Source: Struthio camelus
Taxonomy: Eukaryota > Chordata > Aves > Struthioniformes > Struthionidae
Direction of reading: 5' to 3'
DNA length: 64,000 nucleotides
NCBI RefSeq assembly: GCF_040807025.1
Contig: NC_090943.1
Coordinates: 560,501-624,500 of the forward strand
A program made the position numbers and the translations under genes. Position 1 is the first letter of the stretch. Every line of letters starts with the position of its first letter. Below, one piece after another: positions 3,001 through 41,225 of this stretch. The notes beneath the pieces were generated by a model that worked only from the letters and a program-made list of their open reading frames with translations, made no database searches and had not been told where the DNA came from.

Positions 3001-3240
3001 CACGTTGGCCGCGTGCCGCTGCGGGGCGCGGAGCGCGGTGGAGGAGCCAGGGCCCGCGAGGCAGCACGTGCTGCGGCTCCGCGAGGCAGGCGCAGGTCCG
3101 CGCAGCTGCCCGGCCGGCTGACAACTGGCAGGGGCTGCCTGCGGGCGCTGCCCCGGAGCTGCCTGCGCCCGCCCGGGGCTGGGCCGTCACCAGAGCGCTG
3201 GGATGGGGAAAGGCCTCGCTGCACAGCCGGAGGGGCTGCC
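1..3240. other. Left flank, no gene recognised
   Basis: Mixed-composition DNA with short open frames on both strands, none showing a recognisable domain, a run of splice-bounded exons or consistent codon use. GC content rises from about position 2100 towards the minisatellite on the right. A TATA-like TATAAAA lies near 1121, but no convincing exon follows it. It may be intronic or intergenic. Confidence 0.5.
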
Positions 3241-3246
3241 GACGCC

Positions 3247-4530: not shown

Positions 4531-4699
4531 CAGGGATTGCTTGACTTCTTGCTCAGTGGGATGCACCGTTCTTGAGCTTGGAGGAGGAGGAGGAGATCCT
4601 TGAATGTTAGCAGCTTCTTGGACGCCCCTTCCTTCTAGGGCGCTATCCCATGGGATTCTTCCAAGCAGGTCCCTGAAGAGGCCAAAGCTTGCTCCCCTG

Positions 4700-17539: not shown

Positions 17540-18052
17540 GCTGCCTTCAGCCATTGGCCCCCCCGGCACCCCGCTAGCCCCGGCCCCCCGGGAGCCCCCG
17601 TGAAACCCTGGCACCGCCGCTGTCCCGATCGCCCCGGGAGCTCACGCACCGCCGCCCCCCGGCACCCCGGGGCCCCCAACAGCCCCGGGACGCCCAGCGC
17701 CCCCCGGGCCCCCCAGCATCCCGAGCACCCGCTGTCCCCCGAAAACCGCTGCCCCCCCGCGGCCCCAGCAGCCCCGCTGCCGCGGGCAGGGAGCGCGCCG
17801 CCAGGCCCCCCCCGCCGCCGCCAGGGCCCCCCCGCCGCCGCCGCCTCCCCGGCCCGGCCCGGGCGGCGCCTCCTCCCGCCCGCCCCCGCCTCGCGCGCCG
17901 GCACCGGCGGCACCGGCAGCAGCACCGGCGGCACCGGCAGCAGCGGCAGCAGCGGCAGCAGGGCCGCGCGCCGGGCGGCCGGACCGGACCGGACCGGGCC
18001 GGGCCGAGGCGCTGCCCGGCGGCGGAGGATGGCTGCGGGCACCGGGCCGCGG
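17540..18052 (+). promoter_or_regulatory. CpG-island promoter of gene A
   Basis: Extremely GC-rich sequence with ACCGGCGGC and CAGCAGCGG tandem triplet-type repeats at 17895-17965, leading straight into the first coding exon of gene A. No TATA box is visible. A broad CpG-type promoter is inferred from position. Confidence 0.6.
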
Positions 18053-21000
18053 GTAGGGCCGGGCCGTGCAGCCGGGGGGGCGCGGGGCCGGGAGCGGGGC
18101 CGGTGCCAGCAACGGGGTCCGTACCAGGAGCGGGGCCGGTAGCAGGAGCGGGGCTGGTGCCGAGAGCAGTGTCGGTGCTGAGAGCAGTGTCGGTGCCGGT
18201 GCCGGGAGCGGGGCCGGTAGCAGGAGCGGGGCTGGTGCCAGCAACGGGGTCCGTACCAGGAGCGGGGGCGGTGCCGAGAGCGGGGCCGGTAGCAGGAGCG
18301 GGGCCGGTGCCGGGGGCGGTACCGGGAGCAGGGCCGGTAGCAGGAGCGGGAGCGGGGCCGGTAGCAGGAGCGGGGCCGGTGCCGGGAGCCGGACGCTGTC
18401 GCAGCGCTTTGTCTGGGCCGCCCCGGCGGGAGGCGGCTCCCGGGACGCGGCTCCCTTTGTCCCCGGCCTCCTGCCCCGGCTCCCGGGGACAGCCGGTCCC
18501 GGCTCCCCTTCCCGGCGCTGCTGCCCCGGCCTCCGGGGCCCTCAACCCTGCGGCCTCCGCGCTCCCGGGGGCTCCCCGGGGACCTAGCGGGAGCGGGGGG
18601 AAGCGCTGAGCCCTGGCGCAGACCGACACACCGATGCCCCGAGGCCCTGGCTGCTCCCCCGAGGCCCCCGGCTCTGGGGTCTCCGAGACAGCAGAGGCTG
18701 AGCTGGAGCAGCCTGTTTTCCAGGAGCCGGTGACCTTTGAGGATGTGGCCGTCTACTTCTCCGCGGAGGAGTGGAGGAGGCTGGCAGAGTGGCAGAAGAA
18801 GCTTTACAGGGACATGATGATGCAGAACTACCAACTGATCACATCTCTGGGTAAGTCTTGCTTGTCCTACCCCGGGCAGGGCCCCCTATCCAGCAACCCC
18901 AGGTTTCCTCCTCGCTTCGGGCCCTGTTTGGGGCATGTCTGCACTGCTGTTAAACAGCCCTTCCTGGAGCTGGGGAAGAACCAAGCCAGGACTGTGAGAA
19001 GGAGCCAGAGGCCAGTGGGGAGGGGGAAAGGGGGTGCCAGGGGGTGGCAGGGAAGACGAGGTGTGCTAAGGAACACGGCTGAGGGGCGTCTGCAGGGGCT
19101 GTGTCTGCTCCCCGCGCAGCCAGGCTGGCCCACGGCTTTCCTTCTGCCCCCCACAGCCCCCCAGGAGCGGGGGGCTGGCGGGAGAAGGGCTTGTGCTAGC
19201 GATGGCGCAGCCCACGCGGGGACGGGGAGGACGTCGGGGTGCTGCATCGGGGGGGGCGGGGTGGAGACGGCCCCCCCCTCGCCCGTGGGGACCCGGGGGG
19301 CTTAGGGCTGAACGGCCCAGAGCAAGTCGCGGCGGCCAGGTCTCCTGCGGCGCCGGAGCCCTCCAACGTGCGGGGCGCTGGTGCCCTGCGGCCCATGGAG
19401 CCGTCGCAGCCCCGGGGGCACAGCGGAGACGCGGCTCTGCTTCTCCCCCCGGAGCAGGCTCGGCGGGCCCCAAGCCAGAGGTTGTCCTGAAGCTGGAGCA
19501 AGGGGAAGATCTGCATCCCGGGGATCCTTCGGACGAGTGCGTGGCAGAGAGCTGGAAGGCCCCCGACACAGGTGGGTGACGCGCAGGCCTGCAGCCCCCG
19601 ATGGGCCAGCCCGGTCGCCAGGTCGGAGCTGGCCCCGGCTGCGCGCTCCTCCCCGTCCTGGTGGCCTGTCTCGGTGCCCGCGCTCCTCGCTGTGGAGCAG
19701 GGGTGAGTTGCCTCTGTCCAGCTCTCGGACCGGGTTTTGCAGGGGTTTGCAAGCTGCCCGTGCGCTGTGCGCGGGAGCAGCGAGGGCCGGCTGCTCCGCG
19801 CCGGAAGGTGAGCCGGGAGCGGAGCGCGGTGACAAGGCCGGTGCGGAGCCTGGACCAGCACGGAGCTGGGATGCAGAGCGGCACGGCCGGGTCCGGATCA
19901 GGGTCAGAGACACTGACACAGTCACCCAGCCGACCCGCAGTGATGAGGCAGGTCCGAGGCCAGGCCAGGGAGCCCAGCCGGCGGCGGGTCCAGGTCTGGG
20001 CAGAGCTGGGATGCAGCACAGGCGGGGGCCAGCGGTAAAGCCTTGGCATAAAAGCAGCCCCCAGGGAAAGCAGAGGCAGGCCTTCCAGTTTTTCTAGCTT
20101 TCTTCACAACAGTGCTTATCAGCCGAGGAGCTGACCTTGGACTCAGCCACTGAGCTCTCTGCCTTCGCCAGCCAAACTTCTGGAAGGGGGACGCGCTCCG
20201 GGCCCTGCCAGGCTGCTGGGTGGGAGGTGCTGGTGTGGACACCCTGGCGTCTGCGCGGCGCATGCCTGGGCTGAGCAGCGCCCCGGCTGTACCTGAAAGC
20301 AGAGGTGCAGCTGGGGGCATGCGCCGATGCTCGCGGAGGAAAAGCATCTCTGTTCTCGGAGGGTCCCTCTGTTTCCCCTCGCCCCGTCTCCTTTGCAGCC
20401 TTTTTTGCACCGCTGTCCGGCGCTGCAGGCCCGGTGCTCCCAGGCTGTCCTTGCACAAGGGCCACGTGCTGCTTCTCCCTGATCCCACCAGCAGCATCTC
20501 CTACCTCCTGCAGCCTGTTCTTTTCCCTCCTTTGCACACATGTTGCAGCACAGGAGGCTAAATCCTGCCCAATGAGAGCTGCTAAGGTGCTTTACAGCAC
20601 TGATTCCTTCTTGAACATGAACCTGCTCCTGGCAGAGCTGTCTGTGTGAGGGGGCTGCCAGCCCCAGGCCCTTGGGTGCCACACGTGCAGGGGGAGCCGT
20701 GCCTTGCCGGGGGGCTGGCAGGGAGACCGGCCCTCCAGGGTCTCCACGTGGTGCTGGAAGAGGCTGGAGGTCTGTGGTTGCAGTGCAGGGAGCTGAGTCT
20801 GCATCTCTGTTTTTTCTCCCAGCTCTGTGGTTGAGCAGCACCGTGACTCAGTTTCCCCATTTGCAGAGGGGGTCAGTGCTATTCAGCACCTCCCAGGAGG
20901 GCTGTGAGCACTTTGCTGAGGTCGTGCCAGGAGGCACTGTGGGCAGGAGCTGGGAGGGGAGAGGAAAGGCTCTGGGGACAGGGGGTGAGGGCTGCCAGCG

Positions 21001-22665
21001 AGGAGCCCTCCTGGGCTGAGGACCAGCCTCGGGCAAGACACTGTGCGTAGCCCCGGAGCCTAACAAGGAATCTGTCTTGCAGCGGACTCCTCCAAGCAGC
21101 AGATCTCCTGCTGCACGGCCACCGTGGTTTCCAAGAGGAAGGAGCTCTCCCTGGCCGACAGGGTCAAGCTGCTGCAGGCCCTGGAGTCACCGTCAGCCTC
21201 CCTCTCCAGCGTGGCCAAGCTCTTTGGCATCTCCAAGAGCCAGGCGGGCCGGATCGGCCGGAGCCGGGAGCAGATCCTGGCCGACTGGCGCACCAACGCC
21301 AACCCGCTGCGCAAGCGCAAGCGTGAGGGCAAAGGCGGCGAGGTGGAAGACGCGCTCTTCGCCTGGTTCCAGCAGGCGCTGGCCAGGGGCGAGCGCCTCT
21401 CGGGGCCCATCCTGAAGGCCAAGGCGCAGGAGCTGGCCTCAAACTCCGGCCGAGAGTTCGAGGCCACCGATGGCTGGCTTTGCAGGTGGAAGACCCGCCA
21501 CAACATTGTCTTCAAGCGGCAGCACAGCGAGAAGCAGGATGCGGACATCAGCAGTGCCCAGAGCTGGGTGAGCGAGGTGCTGCCTTCCCTGCTAGCCAGC
21601 TACAGCGCCGAGAACATCTTCAACGCGGACGAGACGGGGCTGCTATACCGCAGCTACCCGGACCGGGCACACACATCCCGGGACCTCCAGCTGCTGGGCG
21701 GCAGGAAGGCCAAGGACCGGATCTCCATCCTGTGCTGCACCAACCACACTGGCACCGAGAAGCGGCGCTTGCTGGTGGTGGGCAAGAGCCGGCGGCCTCG
21801 ATGCCTGCCCAAGGACCTGCGTGCACTGCCGGTAGCCTACGCCAACTCGGCCAACGCTTGGGTGACGGCGCACATCTTCCAGGAGTGGGTTCTGCAGTGG
21901 GACCAGGAGCTTCGCCGCGACCGCCGCAGGATCGTGCTCTTTGTGGGCCACAGCAGCGCGCACCCTTGCGAGCTGAAGGCCAAGCTGCGCAACATCAAGC
22001 TGGTTTACTTCCCCCCCAACACCACCAGCATCACCCAGCCCATGGACATGGGTGTGATCTGCAACCTGAAGGGTCACTACCGGGCGCTGGTGCTGGCCAA
22101 GGCGCTCCAGAACCCGGAGCTGGGCCAGGCAGGGCGGGCGGCCGAGATCGCCGGGCGCGTGACGCTGCTGGACGCCATCTACATCTTGCACCAGGCCTGG
22201 AGCTTGGTCCAGCCGGCAACAGTGCAGAGCTGCTTCCAGAAAGCTGGTTTCCACCTGGTGCCCTTCGAGAGGGGGGAGGCCGACCCGGCCCCGCTGGCGG
22301 ACGTGCCCCGGCCGCCCTTCATGAGCGAGCAGGACTTCCTGGAGTTCGTCAGCATGGACGCGGAGGAGCCGGCCGTGGGCGAGATGACCGGCGAGGAGAG
22401 CTGGCTGGCGCAGCAGAGCCAGCAGGCTGCGGCTGCCGACGGAGAGGAGGAGGACGGTGAGCCGGACCCCGGGAGCCACGTGACGGCGTCCGAGGCCCTG
22501 GCGGGGCTGTCCGCCGCCATGAGGTGGTGCCAGCTCCACGGCTTGGTCTATCACTGGGAGAGGCTGCTGGAGACGGAGAGCGCCGTGCAAATGGCCATCC
22601 TGGCTGAGGCCAGCCAGGGCAAGCTCCCAGCCTGCTGCGGCTACGTGCCCAGCACGGTGCCGTAG
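18029..22665 (+). CDS. Gene A: KRAB-Tigger transposase fusion
   Basis: Predicted 615-residue protein from four exons. Exon 1 is 18029-18052 (M-A-A-G-T-G-P-R; A at -3 and G at +4 around the ATG; donor GTAGGG; phase 0). Exon 2, 18724-18850, is the KRAB A box, exactly 127 nt, starting [17 protein letters not shown]; donor GTAAGT. Exon 3, 19458-19571, 114 nt, is a KRAB B box ([16 protein letters not shown]); donor GTGGGT. Exon 4, 21083-22665, encodes the transposase. All junction phases agree (0, 1, 1) and no stop intervenes. KRAB boxes usually recruit repressive cofactors. Here the zinc fingers expected after a KRAB module are replaced by a pogo/Tigger DNA-binding and DDE region, so a DNA-targeted transcriptional regulator is inferred. 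The mammalian MLE triplet in the A box is MMQ. An ATG at 18634 also reads in frame into exon 2 and could give an alternative N-terminus. No transcript evidence was available. Confidence 0.8.
18066..18390. repeat. Minisatellite in first intron of gene A
   Basis: Imperfect tandem copies of about 18 bases based on GGGGCCGGTAGCAGGAGC, with variants such as GGGGCTGGTGCCGAGAGC. It starts 13 bases after the first splice donor of gene A. Confidence 0.85.
20838..20925 (+). mobile_element. MIR-like SINE fragment
   Basis: The GTGACTCAGTTTCCCCATTT motif, followed by a CAG-rich stretch and GGGCTGTGAGCAC, resembles the MIR core region. It is short and diverged, and lies in the third intron of gene A. Confidence 0.45.
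21083..22665 (+). CDS. Gene A terminal exon: CENPB/Tigger transposase domain
   Basis: Single long exon entered in phase 1 after TCTGTCTTGCAG. In residue numbering of the 615-residue protein: a psq/CENP-B N-terminal helix-turn-helix at about 105-157 ([24 protein letters not shown]), a basic patch LRKRKRE, a second CENPB-type HTH at about 175-232 ([12 protein letters not shown]), then a DDE-superfamily region at about 267-477. The first catalytic Asp is present in NADETGL (271) and the third in QPMDMGVI (410). The second, expected in a DN.SAH block, reads VGHSSAH, so Gly377 replaces Asp. The tail is acidic and ends GYVPSTVP. About 510 residues is normal for Tigger-derived proteins. Loss of one catalytic Asp with an otherwise clean frame suggests a domesticated DNA-binding protein. 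I do not assign a TIGD number. Confidence 0.9.
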
Positions 22666-25600: not shown

Positions 25601-26768
25601 GGCTGGTGCCTATCAGTGTATGTGACCACTGCTGCCAGCTAACACTGCCCCCCAGGGTGCCAATATATCTTGTTTAGCTTTCTGCCAGCCCTAGGAGCTG
25701 CTGCTTCTGGGCAGGCTAGATTGGGAGGACTCCTCCATAGTTGGGGGACTGTAGAGATGAAGCACAGAGCTACCGGAAGGAGTCTCATCCTAGTGCTGCT
25801 TGCAGATTTGAAGGATGGAGATGAGTCCACAGGGCTGGCCTGTTGCTTGGTCGCAGCGGGTGCAGCTCCAGCTTGCCTGTTTGGGTGGGCTAAGCCCATG
25901 AGGATGCAGCTGGAGAGACTGTAAAGGGAGTCAAATCTTGTCAGGGTAGCAAACATCTCTGTAGCATGTTCCAGGCAGCAGTCAGCTCGCTCAGGCGTTA
26001 CCTGGGGCTGCCTGAAAGGCCTGCAATGGCATGGGTATGGTGCCAAGCCTGCAGCCATACGTCCATCCCCTCTGCAGAGCCTTTGGCTTGGAGACATGCT
26101 AATGCAGCTTCTGCTCAGCTGGAGACTGGCCAAAGCAGGCTTAGGTCTGACCACAATGGTACCAGTAGAGAAATGAGCGCTTTGCAAAGGCAGCATGGCA
26201 TGGGCACATCTGGCCAGAGGAGTGTTCCTGGGAGACCTGTGTGAGCAGTGACGTGGGCTTGTCCTCCAGGCAGCAGTCTCCCTGCTGCTCTCGGTGCATC
26301 ACTGGTGCCCCACTGTGTCCCTCAGTGTGCTCCAGGGGTTGGGAGCACTGAGCCAGAGCTGGGCTTGTGTGGGAAGGGTATTGCACAGGATGGGCAACGG
26401 GCTCCTCGGGTGCCGGTGGGGGAGGCAGAGCAGCAGTCTGGGGTGGGCAGGCACATGTTTGTGTCCTAGGGACAGCGGGTGCGAGTTGGGACCAGCTCAC
26501 TGGAGACTGCTGGGAGGTGGAGACGATCCCTGGGCTGAGAGGAGGCTGGAGGGAGGAACCAGCTGCATGCTGGGTTTTCTCTAGTGAGTGTTGGGAAGAG
26601 GCTCCCTCCCGAGGCTCTCCATCGAGGAGAGCAGTGGAGCAGAGGCCCAAACATCTTTCTGTGCAAGGAGAAGTTTCCACATAGGTTTCCTCTAGATTCA
26701 GGGTGTGCTTTCCAACCCCCCCACCAGGGCCCTGGCACATGATATAACCTATGTCTCCCCTTTTCCAG
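22666..26768. other. 3' UTR of gene A and intergenic DNA
   Basis: The first AATAAA noticed after the gene A stop codon is at 24426-24431, implying a 3' UTR of up to about 1.8 kb if it is used. Otherwise no convincing gene is seen. A splice-bounded open segment at 25223-25339 (117 nt, phase 1 to 1, acceptor TTTCCTGCAG, donor GTATGG) could be a decayed B-box exon of the zinc-finger pseudogene that follows, but the protein similarity is weak. Confidence 0.45.
24426..24431 (+). terminator. Possible poly(A) signal of gene A
   Basis: AATAAA within CAGAATAAAGC. It lies about 1.76 kb after the stop codon, and I noticed no nearer canonical signal. Use is inferred. Confidence 0.35.
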
Positions 26769-27684
26769 AAGATCACCATGCCAGGACTGCCTGCGAAGCC
26801 CAGCAGGAAGCACCCATGGGGCAGGAGCCTGGTGTGATACCAGTGGCACAAGACCCCCAAGGGAACATGCCAGGGTCTGGCTGGGGCAGAAGCCAGTGTG
26901 GGTCCGAGCTGGTGCAAAGGGCCAAGGCACCTGGGGAGCCCTGTGGGGAAAGGAGTCAAGAAACCATTTGCTGTTGCCCCAGCTACAGACTCTCAAGGGT
27001 GGCCAGAGGGGAGCTGTGAGGGCAGGGCTGACCACAAGTCTAGCTGGAGAGGGACGAGTTGCAGCCTCAGCATGGGCAGCGGGAGATGGTGGAAGATCCA
27101 CCCAAGCTGGCTGGAGGAAGCTCTCTTGCTGCCAGTTGTGCGGGAAGGTCTTTAGCAGCCGACTGGAGCTGACCAAGCACTGGCGGTTCCACCAGCCACT
27201 GCCGTCTTCTCCTGCAAGGAGTGCGTTCAGGCCTTCGGCAGCACGGGCAGCCCAGCACGGCACCAGCAGCTGAAGGCAGAGGAGAAGGCACACACGCGCT
27301 AGCACTTGGCAGATGTTCCTGTGACACCAGTGCATCCACATAGGGAAGGGGCCCTTTCCCTGTGCCCAGAGCGGGAAGAGCTTCGCACGCAATGAGAACC
27401 TCACCCACCTCTGGGACACGTATGTCCAGGAGCACTTCATCTGGAAGAACCAACCTCACAGCGCAATTCAAGAGCCACAGCCACGTGGTGGAACAGCCAC
27501 ATGCTGGGAGCGTGGGCAGAGCTTCCCCCGCCGCAGGGACCTGCTGCAACACCAGTTGTGCACAGGTACAGCACCCCTCTTCTCTCCTGGGGAGACCTTC
27601 AGGGCGCTCATCCGGATCCACGAAATGCTGATATCCCGCAACCATGCCCACAAGCCCCCGTGGGTCCAGACGAAATACAAATGA
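26769..27684 (+). pseudogene. Decayed C2H2 zinc-finger terminal exon
   Basis: A splice acceptor (CCTTTTCCAG) opens a phase-1 frame reading EDHHARTACEAQQEAP, similar in position and start to the zinc-finger exon of gene B (SEEDHQRHW). The frame ends at a TGA at 27017-27019. One good finger, CQLCGKVFSSRLELTKHWRFH, survives at about 27130-27192. The next, CKECVQAFGS..SPARHQQ at about 27213, lies in a different frame. A third, near 27358, has its second Cys replaced (CAQSGKSFARNENL), and a fourth remnant near 27510 reads CWERGQSFPRRRDLLQHQ. Stops, frame changes and lost zinc ligands mark it as a pseudogene of the same family. I found no KRAB-A exon for it. Confidence 0.8.
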
Positions 27685-27689
27685 GACCG

Positions 27690-28635
27690 TTGCAGGGGAA
27701 AGACAGCCAGCTTCTGCCAGAAAAATGCCTTGCAGGCACCAATCCCTCCCCAGAGCTGCAGCAGTAGAGGGGAATGTGGCCTGGTTTGGGAGTCCCTGCT
27801 TCCTGGGCTGTTCCCTCTTCCCCTCCAAACAGTCAGGAGGTGCTGTCCAGCTTGGGTCTGCACTGGCTCCTGAACCCGAGGGAATATTGACTCACTGCTT
27901 AACGTGCTCTTGTAACTCGGGTCCCAAAGTACTACTGCCCAGTGCACACTCACCAACCTTGCAGATCTCAGCAACATGTACCCTGGCTGAGATGTGCCAC
28001 CTGGTGCCAGAGCAGGACTTGCTGGACGTGTGCCACCCTCCGCTCAGGGAAGAGCTCGAGCCCGGGGCTCCCCAGTCATGCTGCTACCAGCCTCAGATGA
28101 AGCCTGCATGGATGTCACGGCTACGCAGGTGGCGCAGGGAAGGCTGGTGCTTCTGGGCAGGGGGCAGGCGGACAGACGGAGCTGGCACGGCAGGTAGGAG
28201 AGAAGGACAGCACCTGCCCCCCAGCCTGGCAGCAGCCCCTGTGCTGTCACACCCAAGCTGTGTCTCCTCTGCTGCAGCTCTCCGGGAGCTGCGGAGGGGC
28301 TCCCGGGGGGCCTGTGGACAGGTTTGTGGCCGTGTCCTCAGACCGGGCTGCTTTAACACCTCCTTCGTGAGGAGGGAAAGGAGGAGTAAGAGGAGCTGCA
28401 GCCAGGCCCAGCGTTGTCCCTCTCCCCTCCGCCCATGCCTTGTCCCCTGGCCCGGGGCCCGGGGCCCTGGCCCAGCGTGCTGCAGGGAGGCGGCCGGAGC
28501 CGGATGGCGAGCTCAGCGGGACAGCGCATTGCACAGCCAGGGGCCGGGGCCGGGACCAGGACCGGGGCTGGGGCTGGGGCTGGGGGCGGCCTGGCCCAGA
28601 GGGACAAGCAGGCCCGAGGGTGGTGGCCAGAGTCC
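27690..28635. other. Intergenic stretch
   Basis: No gene recognised. A long open frame that crosses this stretch continues into the minisatellite and is not supported by any domain. Confidence 0.5.
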
Positions 28636-28639
28636 CGCT

Positions 28640-29560: not shown

Positions 29561-29689
29561 CCGGTGTCGGCTCCCGATGGTCGCCGCGCCCGGTGCTTCC
29601 CATTCCCGGTGCCGGTTCCTCATGCTCCCCGTTCCCGGAGCTCCCCGCGCCCGGTGCCCGCTGCCCGCCGCCCGCCGCCCGCCGCCCGG

Positions 29690-29900
29690 CGCCCGGCGCA
29701 GCCCGCCCCCGCCGTGTCCTTCCGGCGCCGCCCCGGCCGAGGCTCCGCCGGCGCCATCGCGGAGCGGAGCGGAGCGGCGGGCGCGCTCCGTGCCGGGCCC
29801 GCGGCGCCCGGGGGAGGCGGCGCGGGCCCCGCCGCCCTGCGCCCGCAGCCCGACCCCGACCGGCACCGGCGCCCCCGGCCCGTGGCCGCCGGCGCTGGAA
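29690..29900 (+). promoter_or_regulatory. CpG-island promoter of gene B
   Basis: CpG-dense block with an ETS-like CTTCCGG near 29719, a GGCGCCATCGC (YY1-like) motif near 29750 and GGAGC repeats at 29760-29778, ending at the first ATG of the 49-bp array. No TATA box is visible. Confidence 0.5.
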
Positions 29901-30775
29901 ATGCAGCGGGTGAGTGCGAGCGGGAGCCCCGGGGCGGGTGGCGGTGGAAATGCATCGGGTGAGTGCGAGCGGGAGCCCCAGGACCGGCGGCGGTGGAAAT
30001 GCATCGGGTGAGTACGAGCGGGAGCCGCGGGGCCGGCGGTGGTGGAAATGCATCGGGTGAGTGCGAGCGGGAGCCCCGGGGCGGGTGGCGGTGGAAATGC
30101 ATCGGGTGAGTACGAGCGGGAGCCGCGGGGCCGGCGGTGGTGGAAATGCATCGGGTGAGTGCGAGCGGGAGCCGCGGGGCCGGCGGCGGTGGAAATGCAT
30201 CGGGTGAGTGCGAGCGGGAGCCGCGGGGCCGGCGGTGGTGGAAATGCATCGGGTGAGTGCGAGCGGGAGCCGCGGGGCCGGCGGTGGTGGAAATGCATCG
30301 GGTGAGTGCGAGCGGGAGCCGCGGGGCCGGCGGTGGTGGAAATGCATCGGGTGAGTGCGAGCGGGAGCCGCGGGGCCGGCGGTGGTGGAAATGCATCGGG
30401 TGAGTGCGAGCGGGAGCCGCGGGGCCGGCGGTGGTGGAAATGCATTGGGTGAGTGCGAGCGGGAGCCGCGGGGCCGGCGGTGGTGGAAATGCATCGGGTG
30501 AGTGCGAGCGGGAGCCGCGGGGCCGGCGGTGGTGGAAATGCATCGGGTGAGTGCGAGCGGGAGCCGCGGGGCCGGCGGTGGTGGAAATGCATCGGGTGGG
30601 TGCGAGCGGGAGCCGCGGGGCCGGCGGTGGTGGAAATGCATCGGGTGAGTGCGAGCGGGAGCCGCGGGGCCGGCGGTGGTGGAAATGCATCGGGTGAGTG
30701 CGAGCGGGAGCCGCGGGGCCGGCGGCGGTGGAAATGCATCGGGTGAGTGCGAGCGGGAGCTCCAGGGCTGCTCAT
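29901..30775 (+). repeat. 49-bp minisatellite duplicating start codon and splice donor
   Basis: Eighteen copies with a period of exactly 49 bases (29901, 29950, 29999, and so on to 30734). Each begins ATGCATCGG|GTGAGTGCGAG (ATGCAGCGG in the first copy, ATGCATTGG in the copy at 30440), so every unit carries an ATG and a splice donor three codons later. GTGAG is preserved in every copy except that at 30587, which reads GTGGG. From any ATG, unspliced reading continues for about two units and stops at the TGA of GGGTGAG in the third. Confidence 0.97.
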
Positions 30776-33746
30776 GGCAGTGTGGCCAGCCCATGCCCGG
30801 TCTCTGGGGTCTCCCAGGTCCAGACCTGGTCTCCCAGACCACCCAGGTCTGGGTGGGAGGGAGGCGGCTGGGGAGGCAGGTCTGCGAAGAAGGCCCTCAC
30901 CTCCTCCGGGCCCCACCAGCTGCTTTGGCCACCCCAAAGCACTGCCAGCCATGCCCGTCTCTGTGGCTGAGGCCGAAATTTCCCCCGTTTCCCTCCTCCC
31001 ATTTCCTGCTTCTTGTTTCAGTGGCTCCCAGCTTGCTTTTAGCCTGACAGCTTTAGCTCAGCTGTCACGGAGATCCCACCCTGGGCCACCTTAGACCAGG
31101 CCCTTCCCTGGAGCCGTGCACAGCTTGCACGTGGCTCTGTGCTGGGACAGGGTCGCGCAGGGACGTGTTCCCTTTGCTGGGGAGAGCGGGCTGTGCAGCC
31201 CCTGGGGGCGGCAGGCAGCGGAGCAGGAAGGGCCCGTTGACCGGGGAGCCCGTAGCAGACCTGAGCGCTGGGGCCAGGACTCAGGAGCGCCTGGCCAAGG
31301 CGGCCGGGGTCACCGGCTCCTGCCCACCTCAAGCGCCAGGTAATCACAGCCCCCAGCCATGCCCCGCTCCTTGCCAGGGCGTCCAGGCAGTGGTGTTTTG
31401 GCAAGCGCGGCAAGCTCCAGCAACACGTCTTCCTTGGCAGCGGGGCTGGGAGAGAGCAGCCACGTGGGGAAGGGGGTGACAGGGACACCCCTCACCCTGG
31501 CGCCCAGGAGGTGATGAAGGTGCTGCTGGATCCACAGCTTCTGTCAGACCCCCTTTTTTTTTCCCAGGCTGCAGTGGCGTTTGAGGACGTGGCCGTCTAT
31601 TTCTCCCCCGAGGAGTGGGTAGAGCTGGAGGGATGGCAGCGGGAGCTGTACCAGGAGGTGATGATGGACAATTATGATCTGGTGGCCTGCCTAGGTAAGG
31701 ACGACCCCTCGCTAGAGTCAGGGCACAAAGCCGGCAGTGCTACTGGGCTGGGAGCGCGTGCAAGGGCTCAGCCGCCGGGGCTGCAGCCGGGGCCGGGCGC
31801 CCCTCGGAGCAGCCGGTGCTCGTGGCCCGCTCGGGCCCGTCCCCGAGGCACTCTGCTGCCCTGCAGCTCCTCTGGGAGGTATTTGCCAGGTGTGACCGGC
31901 CAGAGCCCAACCTGCCTTCTCTCCACGCAGAGCGGGGCTCCACCTGGCCAGCTGTCCACCCTGGGCTTGCTGAGTCCATCCCCTGTGTGTGAGGAGTATG
32001 AACCCGCTCCAGGTACCCTGGCCCCCGCTGCCCCCTCTCCCCAGCCGCCCCACAGTCAGGTCAGTACTGGGGCTGAACCGGTGGCTCCAGAGGGCCCTGG
32101 ATGGCCCTGCTGGTCCTGCAGCCCCCTTCCCACCCGGCACATCCCCACCGCCTCCTCTGCCCACTGGGACGCTCTCTCGGCGGCTCCGGGGGATACCCAA
32201 GTGTTTCCCTCCCCACACAGGCTCTGTTGGCCCCACGTCCAAGCTCGTCCACAAAATGGAGCCAGGGGAGGAGTCGCGTGGCGAGGTCCCCCAAGGAGAG
32301 CGGGGCAGAGGAATTCCCGACACCTCTGCTCTCGGTGAGTGGCGTTGGGTTTCCCTCTCTGTGCGTGGCCCCAGCAGATGAGAGTGGAAAACCGGTGCAA
32401 TTTTAGCACCAAACTGTAGCATGAGACCGAGATGGCTCCAGCCAGACCCTCACAAGGCCCTGTCTGAAATCTTGACTCTTTTTTGTGCCGGGTGTCTGCT
32501 GTTTCGCCTCAGCCCCTGGGCCGGTTTGTCCCGGGCGGTTGCAGTGGGTGAGAGGAGGCTGCAGGAGCGTCACAAACTTCCCCTGCACCCGAGCGAGGGC
32601 CGGTGCTAAATGTGTTGGGTCTTCAGTGGGTTTGTGTTAGGTGCCCAGCTCTGGGATGAGTCCTTGTCCCCTTCCCACTGTGATTGTTGGCTTCTGCTCC
32701 CAACAGCTGGCTGGGACATGACCACTGCAGAGGACCTGTCTGAGGAAGACCATCAGAGACACTGGGTCCCACGTGCCTCTCCAGATGGTGGGCCAGAGGG
32801 GCTGGCGATCAAATACCCCAAGCTCTGTCCTAGCTGGTGTGAGGCAAAGCCTGGGGCCTGGGCAGGAGATGCTCCCCAGGAGCTCCCAGGGTGGGACCGG
32901 AGGGAGCAGCCGTTGGACATGCTGGAGGCAGGGAGTGAAGGACTCCTCATCTGCGGCACCTGCGGGAAGAGCTTCGAGGATGAGGCTACCCTGAGCGTGC
33001 ACCAGCGTGAGCACCTCCGCCCGGTGCCCTCGTACGAGTGCACAGCCTGCGGGAAGGTCTTCCGCCACCACTGCAACCTCCTGACGCACAAGAAGCACCG
33101 AGGCAGGAGCCGCCACGCTTGCACAGAGTGCAGCAGGACCTTCTGCTTGAAAGGGGACCTCCTGCGGCACCGGGCAGGCCACGCGGGCGAGGGTGGCCAC
33201 GTCTGCCCTCTCTGCGGGGAGAGCTTCCGCCACAAGCGCAACCTGCAGGTGCACAGGAAGGGGCACGCGGAGGACGCGCTCCACAAGTGCCCCGAGTGCG
33301 AGAAGCGCTTCCAGGACGAGGCCAGCCTGAGCCAGCACCGAGCCACGCACTGCGAGGAGCGGCCGTTCGTCTGCGGGCGCTGCGACCGCAGCTTCAGCTG
33401 GAAGGAGAGCCTGATGATCCACCAGCGCAGTCACACCCAGGAGCGCTCCCACAAGTGCCCTGACTGCGGCCGTAGCTTCAGCCGCAGCGGGAACCTCTTG
33501 GTGCACCAGCGCGTGCACACAGGCGAGCGTCCCTTCGCCTGCGCCCAGTGTGACAAGACCTTTTGCAACAAGGCCAATCTCATCACGCATAAGAAGCTCC
33601 ACCGGCGATTCAAGTCCTTTGCCTGCTCCAAGTGCCGGCTAGGTTTCAGCTCCAAAAGCAAGATGCTCTTGCACCAGCGGGCGCATGGAGAGGGGGACAA
33701 GGTGACCTACGGGGCAGGGGACAACCCGCCGGACTTCCAGCAGTAG
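29901..33746 (+). CDS. Gene B: KRAB zinc-finger protein, nine fingers
   Basis: Predicted 429 residues. Exon 1 is a 9-nt coding stub, M-(Q/H)-R, in one unit of the 49-bp array (29901-29909 if the first copy is used; phase 0). Exon 2, 31568-31694, 127 nt, is the KRAB A box ([17 protein letters not shown], ending DLVACLG); acceptor TTTTTTTCCCAG, donor GTAAGG. Exon 3, 32221-32334, 114 nt, is a diverged B box (GPTSKLVHKMEPGEES); donor GTGAGT. Exon 4, 32707-33746, holds a linker and nine C2H2 fingers. All phases agree. The family acts in the nucleus as sequence-specific regulators that bind DNA through the fingers. The A-box MLE position reads MMD. Which ATG and donor copy are used cannot be told from sequence. 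I saw no AATAAA within about 300 bases after the stop. Confidence 0.85.
30776..31567. other. Remainder of gene B first intron
   Basis: GC-rich intronic sequence between the 49-bp array and the KRAB-A exon, ending in a strong polypyrimidine tract. Nothing else recognised. Confidence 0.5.
32707..33746 (+). CDS. Gene B terminal exon: nine C2H2 fingers
   Basis: Entered in phase 1 after CTCCCAACAG. About 80 residues of linker precede the first finger (CGTCGKSFEDEATLSVHQREH, Cys codon at 32952); the ninth ends near 33686. Fingers 1 and 3-9 keep C-X2-C-X12-H-X3-H; finger 2 (CTACGKVFRHHCNLLTHKKH) has only two residues between its histidines. Only the linker between fingers 7 and 8 is close to canonical TGERPF; the others are diverged (HREHLRPV, HAGEGGHV, HAEDALHK), which suggests an old array not recently homogenised. 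The tail ends DNPPDFQQ. Confidence 0.93.
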
Positions 33747-35250: not shown

Positions 35251-35256
35251 CGGCGG

Positions 35257-35275
35257 ACTACAGCTCCCACAATGC
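35257..35275 (+). promoter_or_regulatory. ZNF143/THAP11-type SBS motif, gene C promoter
   Basis: ACTACAGCTCCCACAATGC fits the SBS pattern ACTACA-NN-TCCCA-NN-ATGC, bound in vertebrate promoters by ZNF143 and THAP11. It lies about 225 bases upstream of the proposed start codon. A YY1-like CGGCGGCCATC follows 84 bases further on, and the same pair occurs at gene D with almost the same spacing. Confidence 0.75.
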
Positions 35276-35505
35276 CTCGGCGGCCGAGCGAGCGCTTTGT
35301 CTTTTCGCCCGTCTGCGGTCTGCGGGAGAAGGTCCCGGGGCGGCGGCCATCGGGCGGAGCGGCCGCTGCCGGGCGCCGTCCATGCCGCGCCGGGGCGGGC
35401 GAGGGAGCGCGGGGCGGCCCCTTCCCCTGCCCGGGCCGCCGCTGCCCCGGCCGCCGCCCCCCCCGCCCGGCCCCCCCCGCCATGCCCCGCACGGGCGGCG
35501 CCCAG
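35276..35505 (+). promoter_or_regulatory. CpG-island core of gene C
   Basis: Contains TTTGTCTTTTCGCCC, a YY1-like site at 35341, long C-runs, and the first coding exon at its right end. An ATG at 35272, inside the SBS, reads in frame to the exon-1 donor and would add 70 residues if transcription began upstream. An ATG at 35382 is out of frame with the KRAB exon and would compete if included in the mRNA. Confidence 0.55.
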
Positions 35506-38500
35506 GTGAGAGCGGCCGGGGGCGGCGGGCACGGGGCGGCGGGCGGTGCGGGGCCGGGGGCTGCGGGTGGTGCGGGGCGGGCGGTGCGGGGCTGCAGGCG
35601 TGGAGGTGCCGGCGGTGCGGGGCCGGGGGCTGCGGGCGGTGCGGGGCTGCAGGCGTGGAGGTGCCGGCGGTGCGGGGCCGGGGGCTGCGGGCGGTGCGGG
35701 GCTGCAGGCGTGGAGGTGCCGGCGGTGCGGGGCTGGGGGCTGCGAGTGGTGCGGGGCGGGTGGTGCGGGGCTGCAGGCGTGGAGGTGCTGGCGGTGCGGG
35801 GCCGGGGGCTGCGGGTGGTGCGGGGCTGCAGGCGTGGAGGTGCCGGCGGTGCGGGGCCGGGGGCTGCGGGCGGTGCGGGGCTGCAGGCGTGGAGGTGCCG
35901 GCGGTGCGGGGCCGGGGGCTGCGGGCGGTGCGGGGCTGCAGGCGTGGAGGTGCCGGCGGTGCGGGGCCGGGGGCTGCGGGCGGTGCGGGGCTGCAGGCGT
36001 GGAGGTGCCGGCGGTGCGGGGCTGGGGGCTGCGAGTGGTGCGGGGCGGGTGGTGCGGGGCTGCAGGCGTGGAGGTGCTGGCGGTGCGGGGCCGGGGGCTG
36101 CGGGTGGTGCGGGGCTGCAGGCGTGGAGGTGCCGGCGGTGCGGGGCCGGGGGCTGCGGGCGGTGCGGGGCTGCAGGCGTGGAGGTGCCGGCGGTGCGGGG
36201 CCGGGGGCTGCGGGCGGTGCGGGGCTGCAGGCGTGGAGGTGCCGGCGGTGCGGGGCCGGGGGCTGCGGGCGGTGCGGGGCTGCAGGCGTGGAGGTGCCGG
36301 CGGTGCGGGGCCGGGGGCTGCGGGTGGTGCGGGGCTGCAGGCGTGGAGGTGCCGGCGGTGCGGGGCTGGGGGCTGCGAGTGGTGCGGGGCGGGCGGTGCG
36401 GGGCTGCAGGCGTGGAAGTGCCGGCGGTGCGGGGCCGGGGGCTGCGGGTGGTGCGGGGCTGCAGGCGTGGAGGTGCTGGCGGTGCGGGGCCGGGGGCTGC
36501 GGGTGGTGCGGGGCTGCAGGCGTGGAGGTGCCGGCGGTGCGGGGCCGGGGGCTGCGGGCGGTGCGGGGCTGCAGGCGTGGAGGTGCCGGCGGTGCGGGGC
36601 CGGGGGCTGCGGGCGGTGCGGGGCTGCAGGCGTGGAGGTGCCGGCGGTGCGGGGCTGGGGGCTGCGAGTGGTGCGGGGCGGGCGGTGCGGGGCTGCAGGC
36701 GTGGAAGTGCCGGCGGTGCGGGGCCGGGGGCTGCGGGCGGTGCGGGGCTGCAGGCGTGGAGGTGCTGGCGGTGCGGGGCCGGGGGCTGCGGGTGGTGCGG
36801 GGCTGCAGGCGTGGAGGTGCCGGCGGTGCGGGGCCGGGGGCTGCGGGTGGTGCGGGGCTGCAGGCGTGGAGGTGCTGGCGGTGCGGGGCCGGGGGCTGCG
36901 GGCGGTGCGGGGCTGCAGGCGTGGAGGTGCCGGCGGTGCGGGGCCGGGGGCTGCGGGCGGTGCGGGGCTGCAGGCGTGGAGGTGCCGGCGGTGCGGGGCC
37001 GGGGGCTGCGGGCGGTGCGGGGCTGCAGGCGTGGAGGTGCCGGCGGTGCGGGGCCGGGGGCTGCGGGCGGTGCGGGGCTGCAGGCGTGGAGGTGCCGGCG
37101 GTGCGGGGCCGGGGGCTGCGGGCGGTGCGGGGCTGCAGGCGTGGAAGTGCCGGCGGTGCGGGGCCGGGGGCTGCGGGCGGTGCGGGGCTGCAGGCGTGGA
37201 GGTGCCGGCGGTGCGGGGCTGGGGGCTGCGAGTGGTGCGGGGCGGGTGGTGCGGGGCTGCAGGCGTGGAGGTGCCGGCGGTGCGGGGCCGGGGGCGGCGG
37301 GTGGTGCGGGGCTGCAGGCGTGGAGGTGCCGGCGGTGCGGAGCCAGGGGCTGCGGGTGGTGCGGGGCTGCAGGCGTGGAGGTGCCGGCGGTGCGGGGCCG
37401 GGGGCTGCGGGTGGTGCGGGGCGGGCGGTGCGGGGCTGCAGGCGTGGAAGTGCCGGCGGTGCGGGGCCGGGGGCTGCGGGTGGTGCGGGGCTGCAGGCGT
37501 GGAGGTGCTGGCGGTGCGGGGCCGGGGGCTGCGGGTGGTGCGGGGCGGGCGGTGCGGGGCTGCAGGCGTGGAGGTGCTGGCGGTGCGGGGTGGGCAGTGC
37601 GGGGCCAGGGGCTGGCGGCGGTGTGGGGCCGGGGGCTGCGGGTGGTGCGGGGCTGCAGGCGTGGAGGTGCCGGCGGTGCGGGGTGGGCAGTGCGGGGCCA
37701 GGGGCTGGCGGCGGTGTGGGGCCGGGGGTGGTGGGCGCGAAGGTGCCGGCGGTGCAGGCTGGGGCTGCGGGCACAGAGGTGCCCGTAGACCCCCCGGCGC
37801 TGTCCTCTCCGCACTGCCGGGACCGCAGCTCTGCCCCTCCGTGCCCGCAGCCCCCGGCCCCGCATCGCCCGCCCCTCCGTGCCCGCAGCCCCCGGCCGCG
37901 GCTCGGGGCTGCCGATCCCTCCCCGTCGGTTCGCCCGGCTCGGCGGGCGCTCTGGGGCTCGGCAGGCAGCGTGAAGCGGCGGGGCAGCTCCCGGGGCCGG
38001 CGGAGATGGGAAGGTCCCGTGAAACGAGCCCGTTCATCCCTCCTGTATATGTCTTCAGAGCCCCGGAGGGTTTTGTGTGGCCGAGCTGGTTTTGCCCCGC
38101 AGCACGGCCCGGGGGAGCATAGCGGCTGGGACAGCCAGGGTGCACTGAGAGACGGGTCTGGGCACCCGCCACCCCAAACCAGCCAGCCCTCGAGGGGGCC
38201 GTGCCATAGGGCTGTGAGCAGGGGTCCCCGGGGCTCGCTGCCCCTCTAGGCTGGTCTCCGCCGGGTGCAGCTCTCCGGCCGGGGGGGCGCTGAGCAGGGA
38301 CCCTTTGCTCTTGCAGGTCCCGGTGACGTTTGAGGACGTGGCCATCTACTTCCCCCCGGAGGAGTGGGCAGAGCTGGCAGAATGGCAGAAGGACCTTTAC
38401 TGGGATGTGATGAGGGAGAATTACGAGCTGGTGGCCTCCCTGGGTGAGAGGGTTTTCCCTGGCTGCCCTCAGAGCCTGCAGGATGGGGTGTTTGCCAGGA

Positions 38501-41225
38501 GGCCTGCTGGGACCGGGGCCGCAGGGAAGGCTGTCAGGAAGCGGGGTGTTGTCTCCTGTGCTCGCAGCTGTCGCTGCTGGTGTGCTTCTGAGACCGAGGA
38601 CAGCTGCGCGCTTTCCGAAGGCTGGCTTTGCCCGGTGGGCACCTCCAGGACGCTGAGACTCCCGAGCCTGGAGGGCAGGAGTTGGAGGAATAGGGCACCG
38701 AGATAAACGTACAGCTGTGTGTGCAGTGTTGAAGCGCTTTGCCGCTTGCCTTGCCAAGGGGAATATCCTGTGTAGGGCCAGGATGCGCCTAGTTCCTAGG
38801 TGAAGGACACTGCGATTCCCTCCCCTAGGAGCAGAAACACCGGGCCCCCAGCTGGATCTTCTCTCCAAGCTGGAGCGAGGGGAAGAACTGCACATTGAGG
38901 ATCTCTTGGGGGAGCTGCGTATGGGAAATCTCTGGGGAGAGCGGCCCGGAGGCCTGGACACCCCCAGCATGGGTGAGTGACCCTGGGAGACCCCTGACAC
39001 TGGTGCAGCGCTGGGGGAGCCGGGTGGGGAGGCAGCCGTCCACGCGCGTGTCCCGCTGTGCTCCCGAGCCGGCTGCGGCCGCTCCCTGCGCTCGGCTGCT
39101 CCGCTCCTGCGGTGACAGGGAGGGCGATTGTCCCCCGCAGGTGCCGGCGTCGCAGGCCCCAAACCCTCGCCGGTGTCTAAGCTGGAGCGAGGGGAAGAAC
39201 GGCGCGGCAGGGACGGCCAGAGCGAGCCGCTCGTCTGCAGTTCTTGCGGGAAGAGGAGGAACGGAGGAATCCTGAACGCCTCCTGCACGGGTGAGTGACT
39301 CCCGCGGAAGTGGCCGTGCAGCGCGGGAAGAGCTGCCAAGGCAGGACCGGCCGCTTTGCCGCGTGCCTTGAGCAAGTCCAGGGCCGTTGCTGGAGCTCGG
39401 CGGTGTGATTCCTGGCGCGTGTCCCCCAGCCCAGCACCGTCTCTGCGGGCGGGTTCACGCCTCAGTGAGGGCATGAGAGCTCTTGTTCAGGATGCCTCAT
39501 CGTGCCAGTTTCCAGAATGAAAGGTGTTAGTGCTGTGGAGCGCAGGAGCAGAAATCCAGCTGGCACTCTCCCATGGAGGACTTCCCTTTCTGAGACAGTC
39601 CTGCCTGCTGCCCAGCCCCTCCTGGGCTTGCTGCATGGCATGTAGGCTCATGTCCTGGCGCTTGCCAGCATGAACTAGAGCAAAGCATGCTTACTGCTCC
39701 AGAGCCGCACTGTCCGCAACTGTAGGGTTGCCCCATGGGGCCCACTCTGCGTCTGCCTGGCCCCTTTCAGGCCATACCCCGTGTTTCTGGAGTACGGACG
39801 CTGCCTTTCTAGGAACTGGCATGTGATGCCTTGTGCTTCCTCCGTGAGCCCTGGGGCCAAAGCAGACTTCAGCAGCTGTGACTTGAGGCTCTCCTGGTCC
39901 TGCCTGCTGCTCACCTCTGTTCTTTCTTGCCGGTGGTCCAAGCCAGGGATCCGCTACACGAGCTGCTCCTGATGGCCAGCCACTTGTTCATGCTGTGGGG
40001 CAGGCGTGCCGAGCGGCGATTCATGGCCTTCCGGGCTTTCCTGAGGTGTCGGCGGGTGCTGAATTGGGAAGACGACGATGACACCTTCATGGCGGACTGG
40101 GAAGACATGATGAACGCTGCCATCGCTGCCCAGTCACCATGCGTTGACCGGCGTTTCTGGAGCAAGAGGACCAGCACGGCGTGGTGGGACCACATCGTGC
40201 TGCAGACCTGGGACGATCAGGAGTGGCTGCAGAACTTCCACATGAGGAAGCAGACCTTCCTGGAGCTCTGTGAGGAGCTCACCCCGGCCCTCCGCCGCCA
40301 GAGCACGCAGTTCAGGGAGCCCATCCCTGTGCAGAAGCGAGTGGCCATTGCTATCTGGAAGCTGGCCACCCCAGGCTGCTACCGCTCTGTGGCTAGCCAG
40401 TTTGGTGTGGGCAAGTCAACAGTGGGGCTGGTGGTGATGGAAGTCTGCGATGCAATCCTTAAGGTAGTTTACCCACGTGTTGTGGCCATGAAGAACATTC
40501 CTGAAATAAGGGCTGCCTTTCAGAAAATGGGTTTCCCAAACTGTGCGGGGGCCATTGATGCAACGCACGTTCCCATAGTTTGTCCTCCGGAAGGAGCCAA
40601 CGAATATGCAAACTGCAACGGGTATTACTCCCTGGTTTTGCAGGGCTTGGTGGACCACCGGGGCAGGTTCATGAACACCAACGTAGGAAGCACTGGCAAG
40701 GTCCATGATGCCAAAGTGCTGATGAGGTCAGGCATATACATGCTTGGACAAGCGGGAACGTTATTCCCTCCCAATGACATTATTATCAATGGTGTGTCAG
40801 TGCCGACGGTTATTTTGGGGGATCCTGCCTATCCCCTCCTGCCGTGGCTGATGACACCTTATCACGGCCACATGAGCCCTGGGAAACGGAAATTCAACGA
40901 AACCCTTGGCAATTGCAGGGTGGTTGTGGAGCACGCCTTCGGCAGGCTGAAGGCACGGTGGCGCTGCCTGCAGAACCGGCTGGATGCCAACGTGGCAAAC
41001 GCCATCCGCATGATCGTGGCCTGCTGCACCCTCCACAACATCTGCGAGGCGAAGGGTGAGTATTTCTGCACAGAGTGGTCCCAGGACACGGATGGTTTGC
41101 TCAACCGGTTCACTCAGCCCGAGAGCGCGCCCATCAACACGAGCACGTGCTCCCGAGAGGCGCGGGAGATCAGGGATGCTATTTGTGCCCATATCCTGGC
41201 CACCCAGGAGGACCCAAAGGAGTGA
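35482..41225 (+). CDS. Gene C: KRAB-PIF/Harbinger transposase fusion
   Basis: Predicted 575 residues from five exons. Exon 1 is 35482-35505 (M-P-R-T-G-G-A-Q; donor GTGAGA; phase 0). Exon 2, 38317-38443, 127 nt, is the KRAB A box ([17 protein letters not shown], ending ELVASLG). Exon 3, 38829-38972, 144 nt, is a B-type box ([14 protein letters not shown]). Exon 4, 39141-39290, 150 nt, is a second B-type box ([16 protein letters not shown]). Exon 5, 39943-41225, is the transposase. Donors are GTGAGA, GTGAGT and GTGAGT. Every junction is in phase (0, 1, 1, 1) and the sum is an exact 576 codons. The exon-5 acceptor, TCTTTCTTGCC followed by GGTGGTCCAAG, is acceptable but not ideal; it is the only one noticed there that keeps phase 1. 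A KRAB effector joined to a Harbinger-type nuclease domain suggests a host regulator made by transposase capture. The A-box MLE position reads MRE. Confidence 0.78.
35545..37760. repeat. 55-bp minisatellite in first intron of gene C
   Basis: About 40 copies over 2.2 kb; GCTGCAGGCGTGGAGGTG landmarks recur every 55 bases (35591, 35646, 35701), with shorter or longer variants. The array starts about 40 bases after the exon-1 donor. The unit has no stop in any frame on either strand, so open frames of more than 1000 codons run through it both ways; they are artefacts. The plus strand is G-rich with GGGGGC runs. Confidence 0.96.
39943..41225 (+). CDS. Gene C terminal exon: Harbinger (HARBI1-like) transposase
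   Basis: About 427 residues of PIF/Harbinger transposase (DDE_Tnp_4 type). An N-terminal part rich in acidic residues (WEDDDDTF) is followed by a helix-turn-helix near residues 275-320 of the fusion ([27 protein letters not shown]). The nuclease motifs are AIDATHVPI with Asp354 (codon 40557), ILGDPAYPL with Asp442 (codon 40821), and [13 protein letters not shown] with Glu478 (codon 40929). All three acidic residues are kept and the frame is clean to the stop. Related autonomous elements need a separate Myb-like partner for DNA binding, and none is seen here. No flanking terminal inverted repeats were noticed, which favours domestication over a recent insertion. Confidence 0.9.

What the first reader, a model, noticed from the sequence alone, without database searches (positions are those of the whole stretch)
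18029..41225. Two independent transposase captures by neighbouring KRAB genes; a phase-1 exon socket
Genes A, B and C share the same skeleton: short ATG exon (phase 0), 127-nt KRAB A, B-type exons of 3n length, then a phase-1 terminal exon. That last slot holds a Tigger transposase, a zinc-finger array and a Harbinger transposase in turn. The symmetric phases make the KRAB module a ready acceptor for any 3' exon with a phase-1 splice site. Two captures from unrelated superfamilies within one cluster suggest the locus is prone to such events.
Basis: partly seen in the sequence, partly recalled or inferred. Interest (0 to 1): 0.93.

Follow-up and report, generated by a model that had tools for sequence, protein, structure and literature searches.

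The report
KRAB genes that captured transposases
Two neighbouring repressor-type genes in a bird-like genome each carry, in place of the usual zinc-finger tail, the enzyme of a different jumping gene, probably making new DNA-binding regulators by a route already known from other vertebrates.

Summary
Genes A, B and C share a phase-0 ATG exon, a 127-nt KRAB-A exon, 3n B-type exons and a phase-1 terminal exon carrying a pogo/Tigger transposase, a zinc-finger array and a Harbinger transposase. Spliced, they give open frames of 615, 429 and 575 aa. A's transposase exon has no in-frame ATG before residue 321 of 527, so its DNA-binding half must be translated from upstream. A decayed zinc-finger exon 4 kb downstream (0 of 1000 shuffles score as high) is probably A's displaced original end. 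The nearest relatives in the genome are only 41% (A) and 43% (C) identical. C's KRAB alone, of 16 scored, keeps all 12 KAP1-binding residues.

The 'socket' is the ordinary KRAB layout. Proneness to capture is plausible but open: a second Tigger-type gene and a KRAB gene with an orphan exon lie in the same cluster, yet the Tiggers may share one origin, and no transcripts or other species could be examined. Host-transposase fusion is a known route (KRABINER, POGK); I file A and C as new members of it, unusual for two superfamilies in neighbouring paralogues.

The parts
18029..18052 (+). Gene A exon 1, ATG, 24 nt, phase 0 (MAAGTGPR)
18724..18850 (+). Gene A KRAB-A exon, 127 nt
   Evidence: (Pfam KRAB 6.2e-22)
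19458..19571 (+). Gene A KRAB-B-type exon, 114 nt, phase 1-1
21083..22665 (+). Gene A terminal exon: pogo/Tigger transposase, phase 1; no in-frame ATG before residue 321 of 527; second presumed catalytic Asp reads Gly
   Evidence: (DDE_1 1.9e-38, HTH_Tnp_Tc5 3e-16)
26769..27690 (+). Decayed zinc-finger terminal exon (acceptor in the phase A would need, stops and frame changes inside), probably gene A's displaced original end; end coordinate approximate
29901..29909 (+). Gene B exon 1, ATG CAG CGG, phase 0; first unit of a 49-bp minisatellite whose units repeat ATG plus splice donor
31568..31694 (+). Gene B KRAB-A exon, 127 nt
32221..32334 (+). Gene B KRAB-B-type exon, 114 nt, phase 1-1
32707..33746 (+). 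Gene B terminal exon: C2H2 zinc-finger array, phase 1
35482..35505 (+). Gene C exon 1, ATG, 24 nt, phase 0 (MPRTGGAQ)
38317..38443 (+). Gene C KRAB-A exon, 127 nt; keeps 12 of 12 KAP1-binding residues
38829..38972 (+). Gene C KRAB-B-type exon 1, 144 nt, phase 1-1
39141..39290 (+). Gene C KRAB-B-type exon 2, 150 nt, phase 1-1
39943..41225 (+). Gene C terminal exon: Harbinger transposase, phase 1 through an AAG acceptor; presumed DDE triad intact; own in-frame ATG at 39972
   Evidence: (DDE_Tnp_4 1.6e-32)
55108..60408 (+). Gene D: zinc-finger gene with phase-1 B-type exons and no KRAB-A match of its own; possible alternative 3' end for gene C's KRAB exons
   Evidence: exons read by eye

Best explanation
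Genes A and C are two host-transposase fusion genes. A KRAB zinc-finger gene was duplicated in tandem. A pogo/Tigger transposon entered the last intron of copy A, and a Harbinger transposon entered a 3' intron of, or the region downstream of, copy C. In each case an acceptor in the right phase let the KRAB exons splice to the transposase instead of a zinc-finger exon; in A the old zinc-finger exon then decayed. The products most likely bind DNA through the transposase part and recruit the KAP1/TRIM28 silencing machinery through KRAB: C's KRAB fully, A's more weakly (Glu35 to Gln, Val32 to Met). A should not cut DNA if its second catalytic residue is truly lost; C may still have its triad. Shown: exon geometry, open frames, domains, lack of near-identical copies, the dead zinc-finger exon, the missing start codon in A. 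Inferred: transcription, splicing, that the dead exon was A's, age, DNA targets, repression.
For: Spliced frames open end to end with phase-matched splice sites. A's transposase exon has no in-frame ATG for 320 codons, which hold both DNA-binding matches. Dead zinc-finger exon at 26769-27690 on the same strand, no KRAB match between it and A's transposase (0 of 1000 shuffles). Nearest relatives 41% (A) and 43% (C) identical; of 57 Harbinger-like matches 49 carry stops, while C's frame is open. The 1.5 kb after each exon gave one match each in a genome-wide DNA search, itself. C's KRAB keeps 12 of 12 KAP1-binding residues, the only one of 16 scored (residues).
Against: No RNA evidence. C's acceptor is AAG with a competing out-of-frame CAG 4 nt downstream, and its transposase has its own ATG at 39972, so C could be a stand-alone gene. 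No terminal inverted repeats or target-site duplications stood out. No decayed zinc-finger exon was seen downstream of C within the window. Purifying selection was not tested. A's KRAB departs at 3 of 12 KAP1 residues. The absence of Met in 320 codons is itself not very rare (0.04 to 0.0008 for Met frequencies of 1 to 2.2%); what counts is that no start exists there.
Confidence: 0.75

Rival explanations
1. The transposase ORFs, C's above all, are stand-alone domesticated single-exon genes that merely sit beside KRAB exons; the KRAB exons splice elsewhere (for C, to gene D's zinc-finger exons).
For: C's exon has its own ATG at 39972. A Harbinger-derived ORF with an in-frame ATG of its own exists at C94:29574-30509. 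Gene D downstream has no KRAB-A match of its own and enters at phase 1. C's acceptor is weak.
Against: A's transposase exon lacks a usable start and the zinc-finger exon downstream of it is dead. In C, a phase-1 donor leads in frame into the transposase exon 653 nt away, no zinc-finger match lies between 41.2 and 59.3 kb, and C's KRAB is the best preserved of 16 scored.
Confidence: 0.15
2. A's Tigger and the Tigger-type gene at C2:949138-950574 are one capture that was duplicated with the cluster, so the cluster shows fewer independent events than it seems to.
For: That gene is A's best match in the genome apart from itself: 41% identity, against 35% for the next (the reverse search was not run). 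KRAB clusters grow by tandem duplication.
Against: Their N-terminal leads differ: 17 aa from acceptor to the shared RKELSL motif region in A, about 155 aa in the other. The other gene has no KRAB match on its strand in the 7.5 kb upstream that I fetched. With so few relatives in hand the tree cannot be rooted.
Confidence: 0.45
3. Both ORFs are still transposons or recent insertions, without host function.
For: C keeps all three presumed catalytic residues.
Against: No near-identical second copy, no detectable inverted repeats, flanks matched only once. A has lost a presumed catalytic residue and has no start codon for its first 320 residues.
Confidence: 0.03

Closest known systems
Host-transposase fusion genes of tetrapods (Cosby et al. 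2021; 106 genes from 94 events), KRABINER of bats as the type case
   Same: KRAB joined to a full transposase; origin by capture through splicing; use as a DNA-binding repressor (known to me here only through passages in PMC8616336, PMC8232201 and PMC12062965; the paper itself is not held)
   Different: KRABINER uses a mariner transposase. Here a pogo/Tigger and a Harbinger transposase, in neighbouring paralogues, with a decayed zinc-finger exon beside one of them. Whether Cosby et al. already list these loci could not be checked.
[quoted passage not shown]
   Same: KRAB plus pogo-superfamily transposase
   Different: POGK derives from Passer, has a BrkDBD domain and is described as a mammalian domestication (PMC7386202, passages). 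A shows HTH_Tnp_Tc5 and DDE_1 with no BrkDBD match at E up to 0.01, and matches the CENP-B DNA-binding domain.
HARBI1 (domesticated Harbinger)
   Same: Harbinger transposase (DDE_Tnp_4)
   Different: HARBI1 is not fused to KRAB (recall). A HARBI1-like locus sits at C5:39796869-39798426, 21% and 32% identical to C's exon in its two pieces; the name HARBI1 for that locus is my recall.
KRAB zinc-finger genes
   Same: Exon skeleton and KRAB-A/B exons; gene B is one
   Different: A and C end in transposases, not in zinc-finger arrays

Membership tests
Host-transposase fusion gene | Host domain and transposase in one continuous reading frame across a splice junction | tested here: met
   Open spliced frames of 615 and 575 aa, phase-matched sites; sequence only
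Host-transposase fusion gene | Transcript that joins host and transposase exons | not testable with these tools
   No RNA data on hand
Host-transposase fusion gene (gene A) | Origin by exon capture next to or in place of a host exon | tested here: met
   Decayed zinc-finger exon downstream on the same strand, no KRAB match between; that it was A's is inference
Host-transposase fusion gene (gene C) | Origin by exon capture next to or in place of a host exon | tested here: inconclusive
   No zinc-finger relic found downstream of C before gene D
Host-transposase fusion gene | Fixed, conserved in related species under purifying selection | not testable with these tools
   No other vertebrate genome is searchable here; an open frame without near-identical copies only hints at it
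Host-transposase fusion gene | No longer a mobile element | tested here: met
   No near-identical second copy, 3' flanks matched once, no clear inverted repeats
POGK | Passer-type BrkDBD in the transposase part | tested here: not met
   No BrkDBD among Pfam matches of A up to E 0.01
HARBI1 | Orthology to the HARBI1 gene | tested here: not met
   A separate HARBI1-like locus at C5; C is 21% and 32% identical to its two pieces
KRAB zinc-finger gene | C2H2 zinc-finger array in the terminal exon | tested here: not met
   A and C: transposases instead; gene B meets it
KAP1-recruiting KRAB | The 12 residues required for KAP1 binding (PMC9753469, section 8) | tested here: inconclusive
   C 12 of 12, B 10 of 12, A 9 of 12; binding itself untested

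The most novel reading that the evidence does not exclude
The cluster is a terminal-exon exchange site: the KRAB module has repeatedly swapped its DNA-recognition end, taking two pogo/Tigger captures, a Harbinger capture and a still unidentified orphan exon besides zinc fingers, so that new repressors with new DNA specificities arise by replacing one exon, and the displaced zinc-finger exon then dies.
Probability: 0.3. Interest if true: 0.78.

Novelty: new member of a known kind. Interest (0 to 1): 0.57.

Why it matters
It shows transposase capture at the level of the exon and leaves its trail: live KRAB exons, a captured transposase without its own start codon, and a dead zinc-finger exon that it probably replaced, with sister genes beside it that kept zinc fingers. 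If confirmed by transcripts and dated in other birds and reptiles, the cluster would let one test whether KRAB clusters are preferred landing sites or preferred keepers of captured transposases, and whether a fused transposase inherits its transposon's old binding sites as a ready-made regulatory network.

Tried and rejected
Assembly chimera: unlikely, the window lies inside a 173.66-Mb contig. Inverted repeats flanking the two ORFs: among the 25 longest pairs shown of 37 (C) and of 111 (A), only short or imperfect pairs, none standing out around either ORF. hAT and piggyBac transposases in the cluster: no match there (PF05699, 9 matches elsewhere; PF13843, 2 matches elsewhere). Link of the cluster to the EZH2-side zinc-finger cluster of mammals (recalled): the two PF11616 matches lie at C2:62.67 Mb and on C25, not adjacent, so dropped. 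KRAB-A trees: A, B, C and C2:650969 lie near one another but support is weak; they neither join nor separate A and C clearly. A degenerate zinc finger in the terminal exon of the second Tigger gene: 3.6 bits only, not claimed. Structure prediction of C's transposase: the machine was busy at every try. A scan with PF12417 (DUF3669) was asked for four times, never answered, and dropped. The Pfam scan of the orphan exon of the gene at C2:815513 gave nothing at E up to 1.

Full report
What was checked. The window is C2:560501-624500 of a 1.45-Gb genome in 262 contigs. Its host is bird-like by my reading; no call names the organism. I rebuilt genes A, B and C from the raw sequence and tested the exon boundaries by script. 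The spliced frames give 615, 429 and 575 residues with a single stop at the end. Pfam names KRAB in all three, DDE_1 and HTH_Tnp_Tc5 in A, zf-C2H2 in B and DDE_Tnp_4 in C. A's transposase also matches the DNA-binding domain of human CENP-B (1hlv, E 3.7e-12), so it is a pogo-superfamily protein; whether it is strictly Tigger, pogoR or Passer was not resolved.

Why A is a fusion and not two neighbours. The open frame around A's transposase runs from 21064 to 22665 and its first in-frame ATG is at 22042, residue 321 of 527 counted from the acceptor. Everything before it, including both DNA-binding matches (residues 18-140 against CENP-B, 87-145 for HTH_Tnp_Tc5) and more than half of the DDE_1 match (211-385), has no start codon of its own. 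The frame is nevertheless open and alignable to relatives, so it must be translated from an upstream exon, and the only upstream exons I found are the KRAB ones. C is weaker on this point: its exon has an ATG at 39972 and needs an AAG acceptor, with an out-of-frame CAG 4 nt on.

The displaced exon. A scan of both strands of the window with a zinc-finger profile built from genes B and D gave, outside those two arrays, just two matches above 5 bits (domain E up to 0.1): 27130-27192 and 27355-27405, both on the + strand downstream of A's transposase. Scored by itself, the stretch 26700-27700 reaches 12.2 bits at best; none of 1000 dinucleotide-preserving shuffles did (maximum 5.8). It matches gene D's array at 72% over 79 bases (E 1e-7 in a two-sequence comparison). 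An acceptor TTTTCCAG|AA at 26769 opens it in the phase A's exons would need, and the array is broken by stops and frame changes. No KRAB match lies between A's transposase and it. The simplest reading is that A was a KRAB zinc-finger gene, that the transposase exon took over the 3' end, and that the zinc-finger exon died. Downstream of C no such relic was found before gene D. Gene D has phase-1 B-type exons and no KRAB-A match of its own; it starts 14 kb after C's last exon and could be an alternative 3' end for C.

Are the transposases still transposons? Searching the genome with C's transposase gave 57 matches (98 of 194 candidates scored, so a lower bound): itself at full length, relatives of 43% (C94, residues 62-378) and 35% (C26, residues 69-416), and shorter pieces. 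Of the 57, 8 have no stop inside and 49 do. A's transposase gave 5 matches: itself, C2:949138-950574 (41%), a TIGD4-like gene on C4 (35%), a TIGD5-like gene at C2:171.8 Mb (28%) and a fragment on C8; the TIGD names are my recall. The 1.5 kb after each exon matched only itself, in a search that skips simple and very common words, and no convincing inverted repeats flank either ORF. In A the second presumed catalytic Asp reads Gly, while the first and third are kept; in C all three acidic residues are kept, as in the C26 gene and unlike the C94 gene. Which residues are catalytic is recalled, not taken from a call.

Do the KRABs still look like repressors? [quoted passage not shown]). Scored on the 16 of 25 KRAB matches that are at least 41 residues long (the other 9 were dropped as partial), C keeps 12 of 12 and is the only one to do so; C2:650969 keeps 11; B keeps 10 (Ile11Val, Glu35Asp); A keeps 9 (Ile11Val, Val32Met, Glu35Gln); the other 12 keep 7 to 10. 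So C should recruit KAP1 well and A less well. This is prediction, not measurement.

The socket and the neighbourhood. The KRAB-A exon has the same splice-site positions in 13 of 13 plus-strand full-length KRAB exons of the genome (read from the flanks; minus-strand ones were not read), so it explains how captures can work but not why here. Of the 17 KRAB matches on C2 (579-976 kb) I could look well downstream of 10: 7 have zinc-finger arrays downstream on the same strand (B and the genes at 650969, 848275, 878011, 929415, 968996, 976103; splicing checked only for B), one has Tigger (A), one Harbinger (C), and one (815513) a phase-1 exon of about 424 residues without any Pfam match. A second Tigger-type gene at C2:949138-950574 on the minus strand also has a phase-1 acceptor before its transposase exon and a candidate ATG exon with a phase-1 donor upstream; its first Met in the terminal exon is residue 172 of 651; no KRAB match was seen on its strand in the 7.5 kb fetched upstream. 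In the genome, 2 of 9 DDE_1 matches and 1 of 13 DDE_Tnp_4 matches lie in this 0.4-Mb cluster; of those that span nearly the whole profile without a stop it is 2 of 3 and 1 of 3. That concentration is striking, but the two Tiggers may be one capture later duplicated, and host genes with introns are undercounted by this search. hAT and piggyBac families have no match in the cluster.

Compared with what is known. Capture of transposases by KRAB and other host genes through splicing is described (Cosby et al. 2021, known to me here only through passages in PMC8616336, PMC8232201 and PMC12062965; the paper is not held). POGK joins KRAB to a Passer-type pogo transposase in mammals (PMC7386202, passages); A shows no BrkDBD, which marks POGK. 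Searches combining KRAB with Harbinger, HARBI1, Tigger, host-transposase fusion and birds or sauropsids turned up no paper whose listing, or the passages I read, describes a KRAB-Harbinger or a bird KRAB-Tigger gene, but the library lacks most subscription journals and these loci may be in Cosby's tables. I therefore file A and C as new members of a known kind.

Verdict. The strongest new facts are A's missing start codon, the dead zinc-finger exon downstream of it, and the full KAP1-binding set in C.

Noticed in passing
window 29884-30760: A 49-bp minisatellite (17.9 copies, 96% matches) iterates gene B's start exon: most units read ATG CAT CGG followed by a GTGAGT splice donor, so the gene has some 18 tandem candidate first exons of phase 0.
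   Followed up: partly
window 18077-18389, 29884-30760, 35518-37687: The first introns of A, B and C all begin with a GC-rich minisatellite within 25 bp of, or overlapping, the start exon.
   Followed up: partly
L074:841-2111 (G000:C2:817741-819011): A KRAB gene (KRAB at C2:815513) has a phase-1 orphan exon of about 424 aa downstream, without Pfam match, with LxDHxYC-like repeats. The genome gave 57 further matches, all partial: 52 of the 57 lie on contig C40 between 0.1 and 16 Mb, and 41 of the 57 carry stops.
   Followed up: partly
G000:C40 and G000:C41: The two contigs share matches at a near-constant offset of 19.3 to 19.5 Mb (for example C40:55644852 and C41:75183408), as if Z and W chromosomes with a large shared region; this would suit a ratite. 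Inference only.
   Followed up: no
G000:C94:29574-30509 and G000:C26:259588-260640: Two further Harbinger-derived matches in open frames of 626 and 401 aa. The first has lost all three presumed catalytic residues, the second keeps them.
   Followed up: partly
window 43714-44916 and 2876-4552, minus strand: Open reverse-transcriptase ORFs (RVT_1, E 8.4e-33 and 1.7e-20), CR1-like by recall.
   Followed up: no
KRAB loci of G000 (L001-L015, L023): 10 of the 16 KRAB-A domains scored have lost Glu35, a residue reported as essential for KAP1 silencing; in 6 of the 10 it reads Gly.
   Followed up: partly
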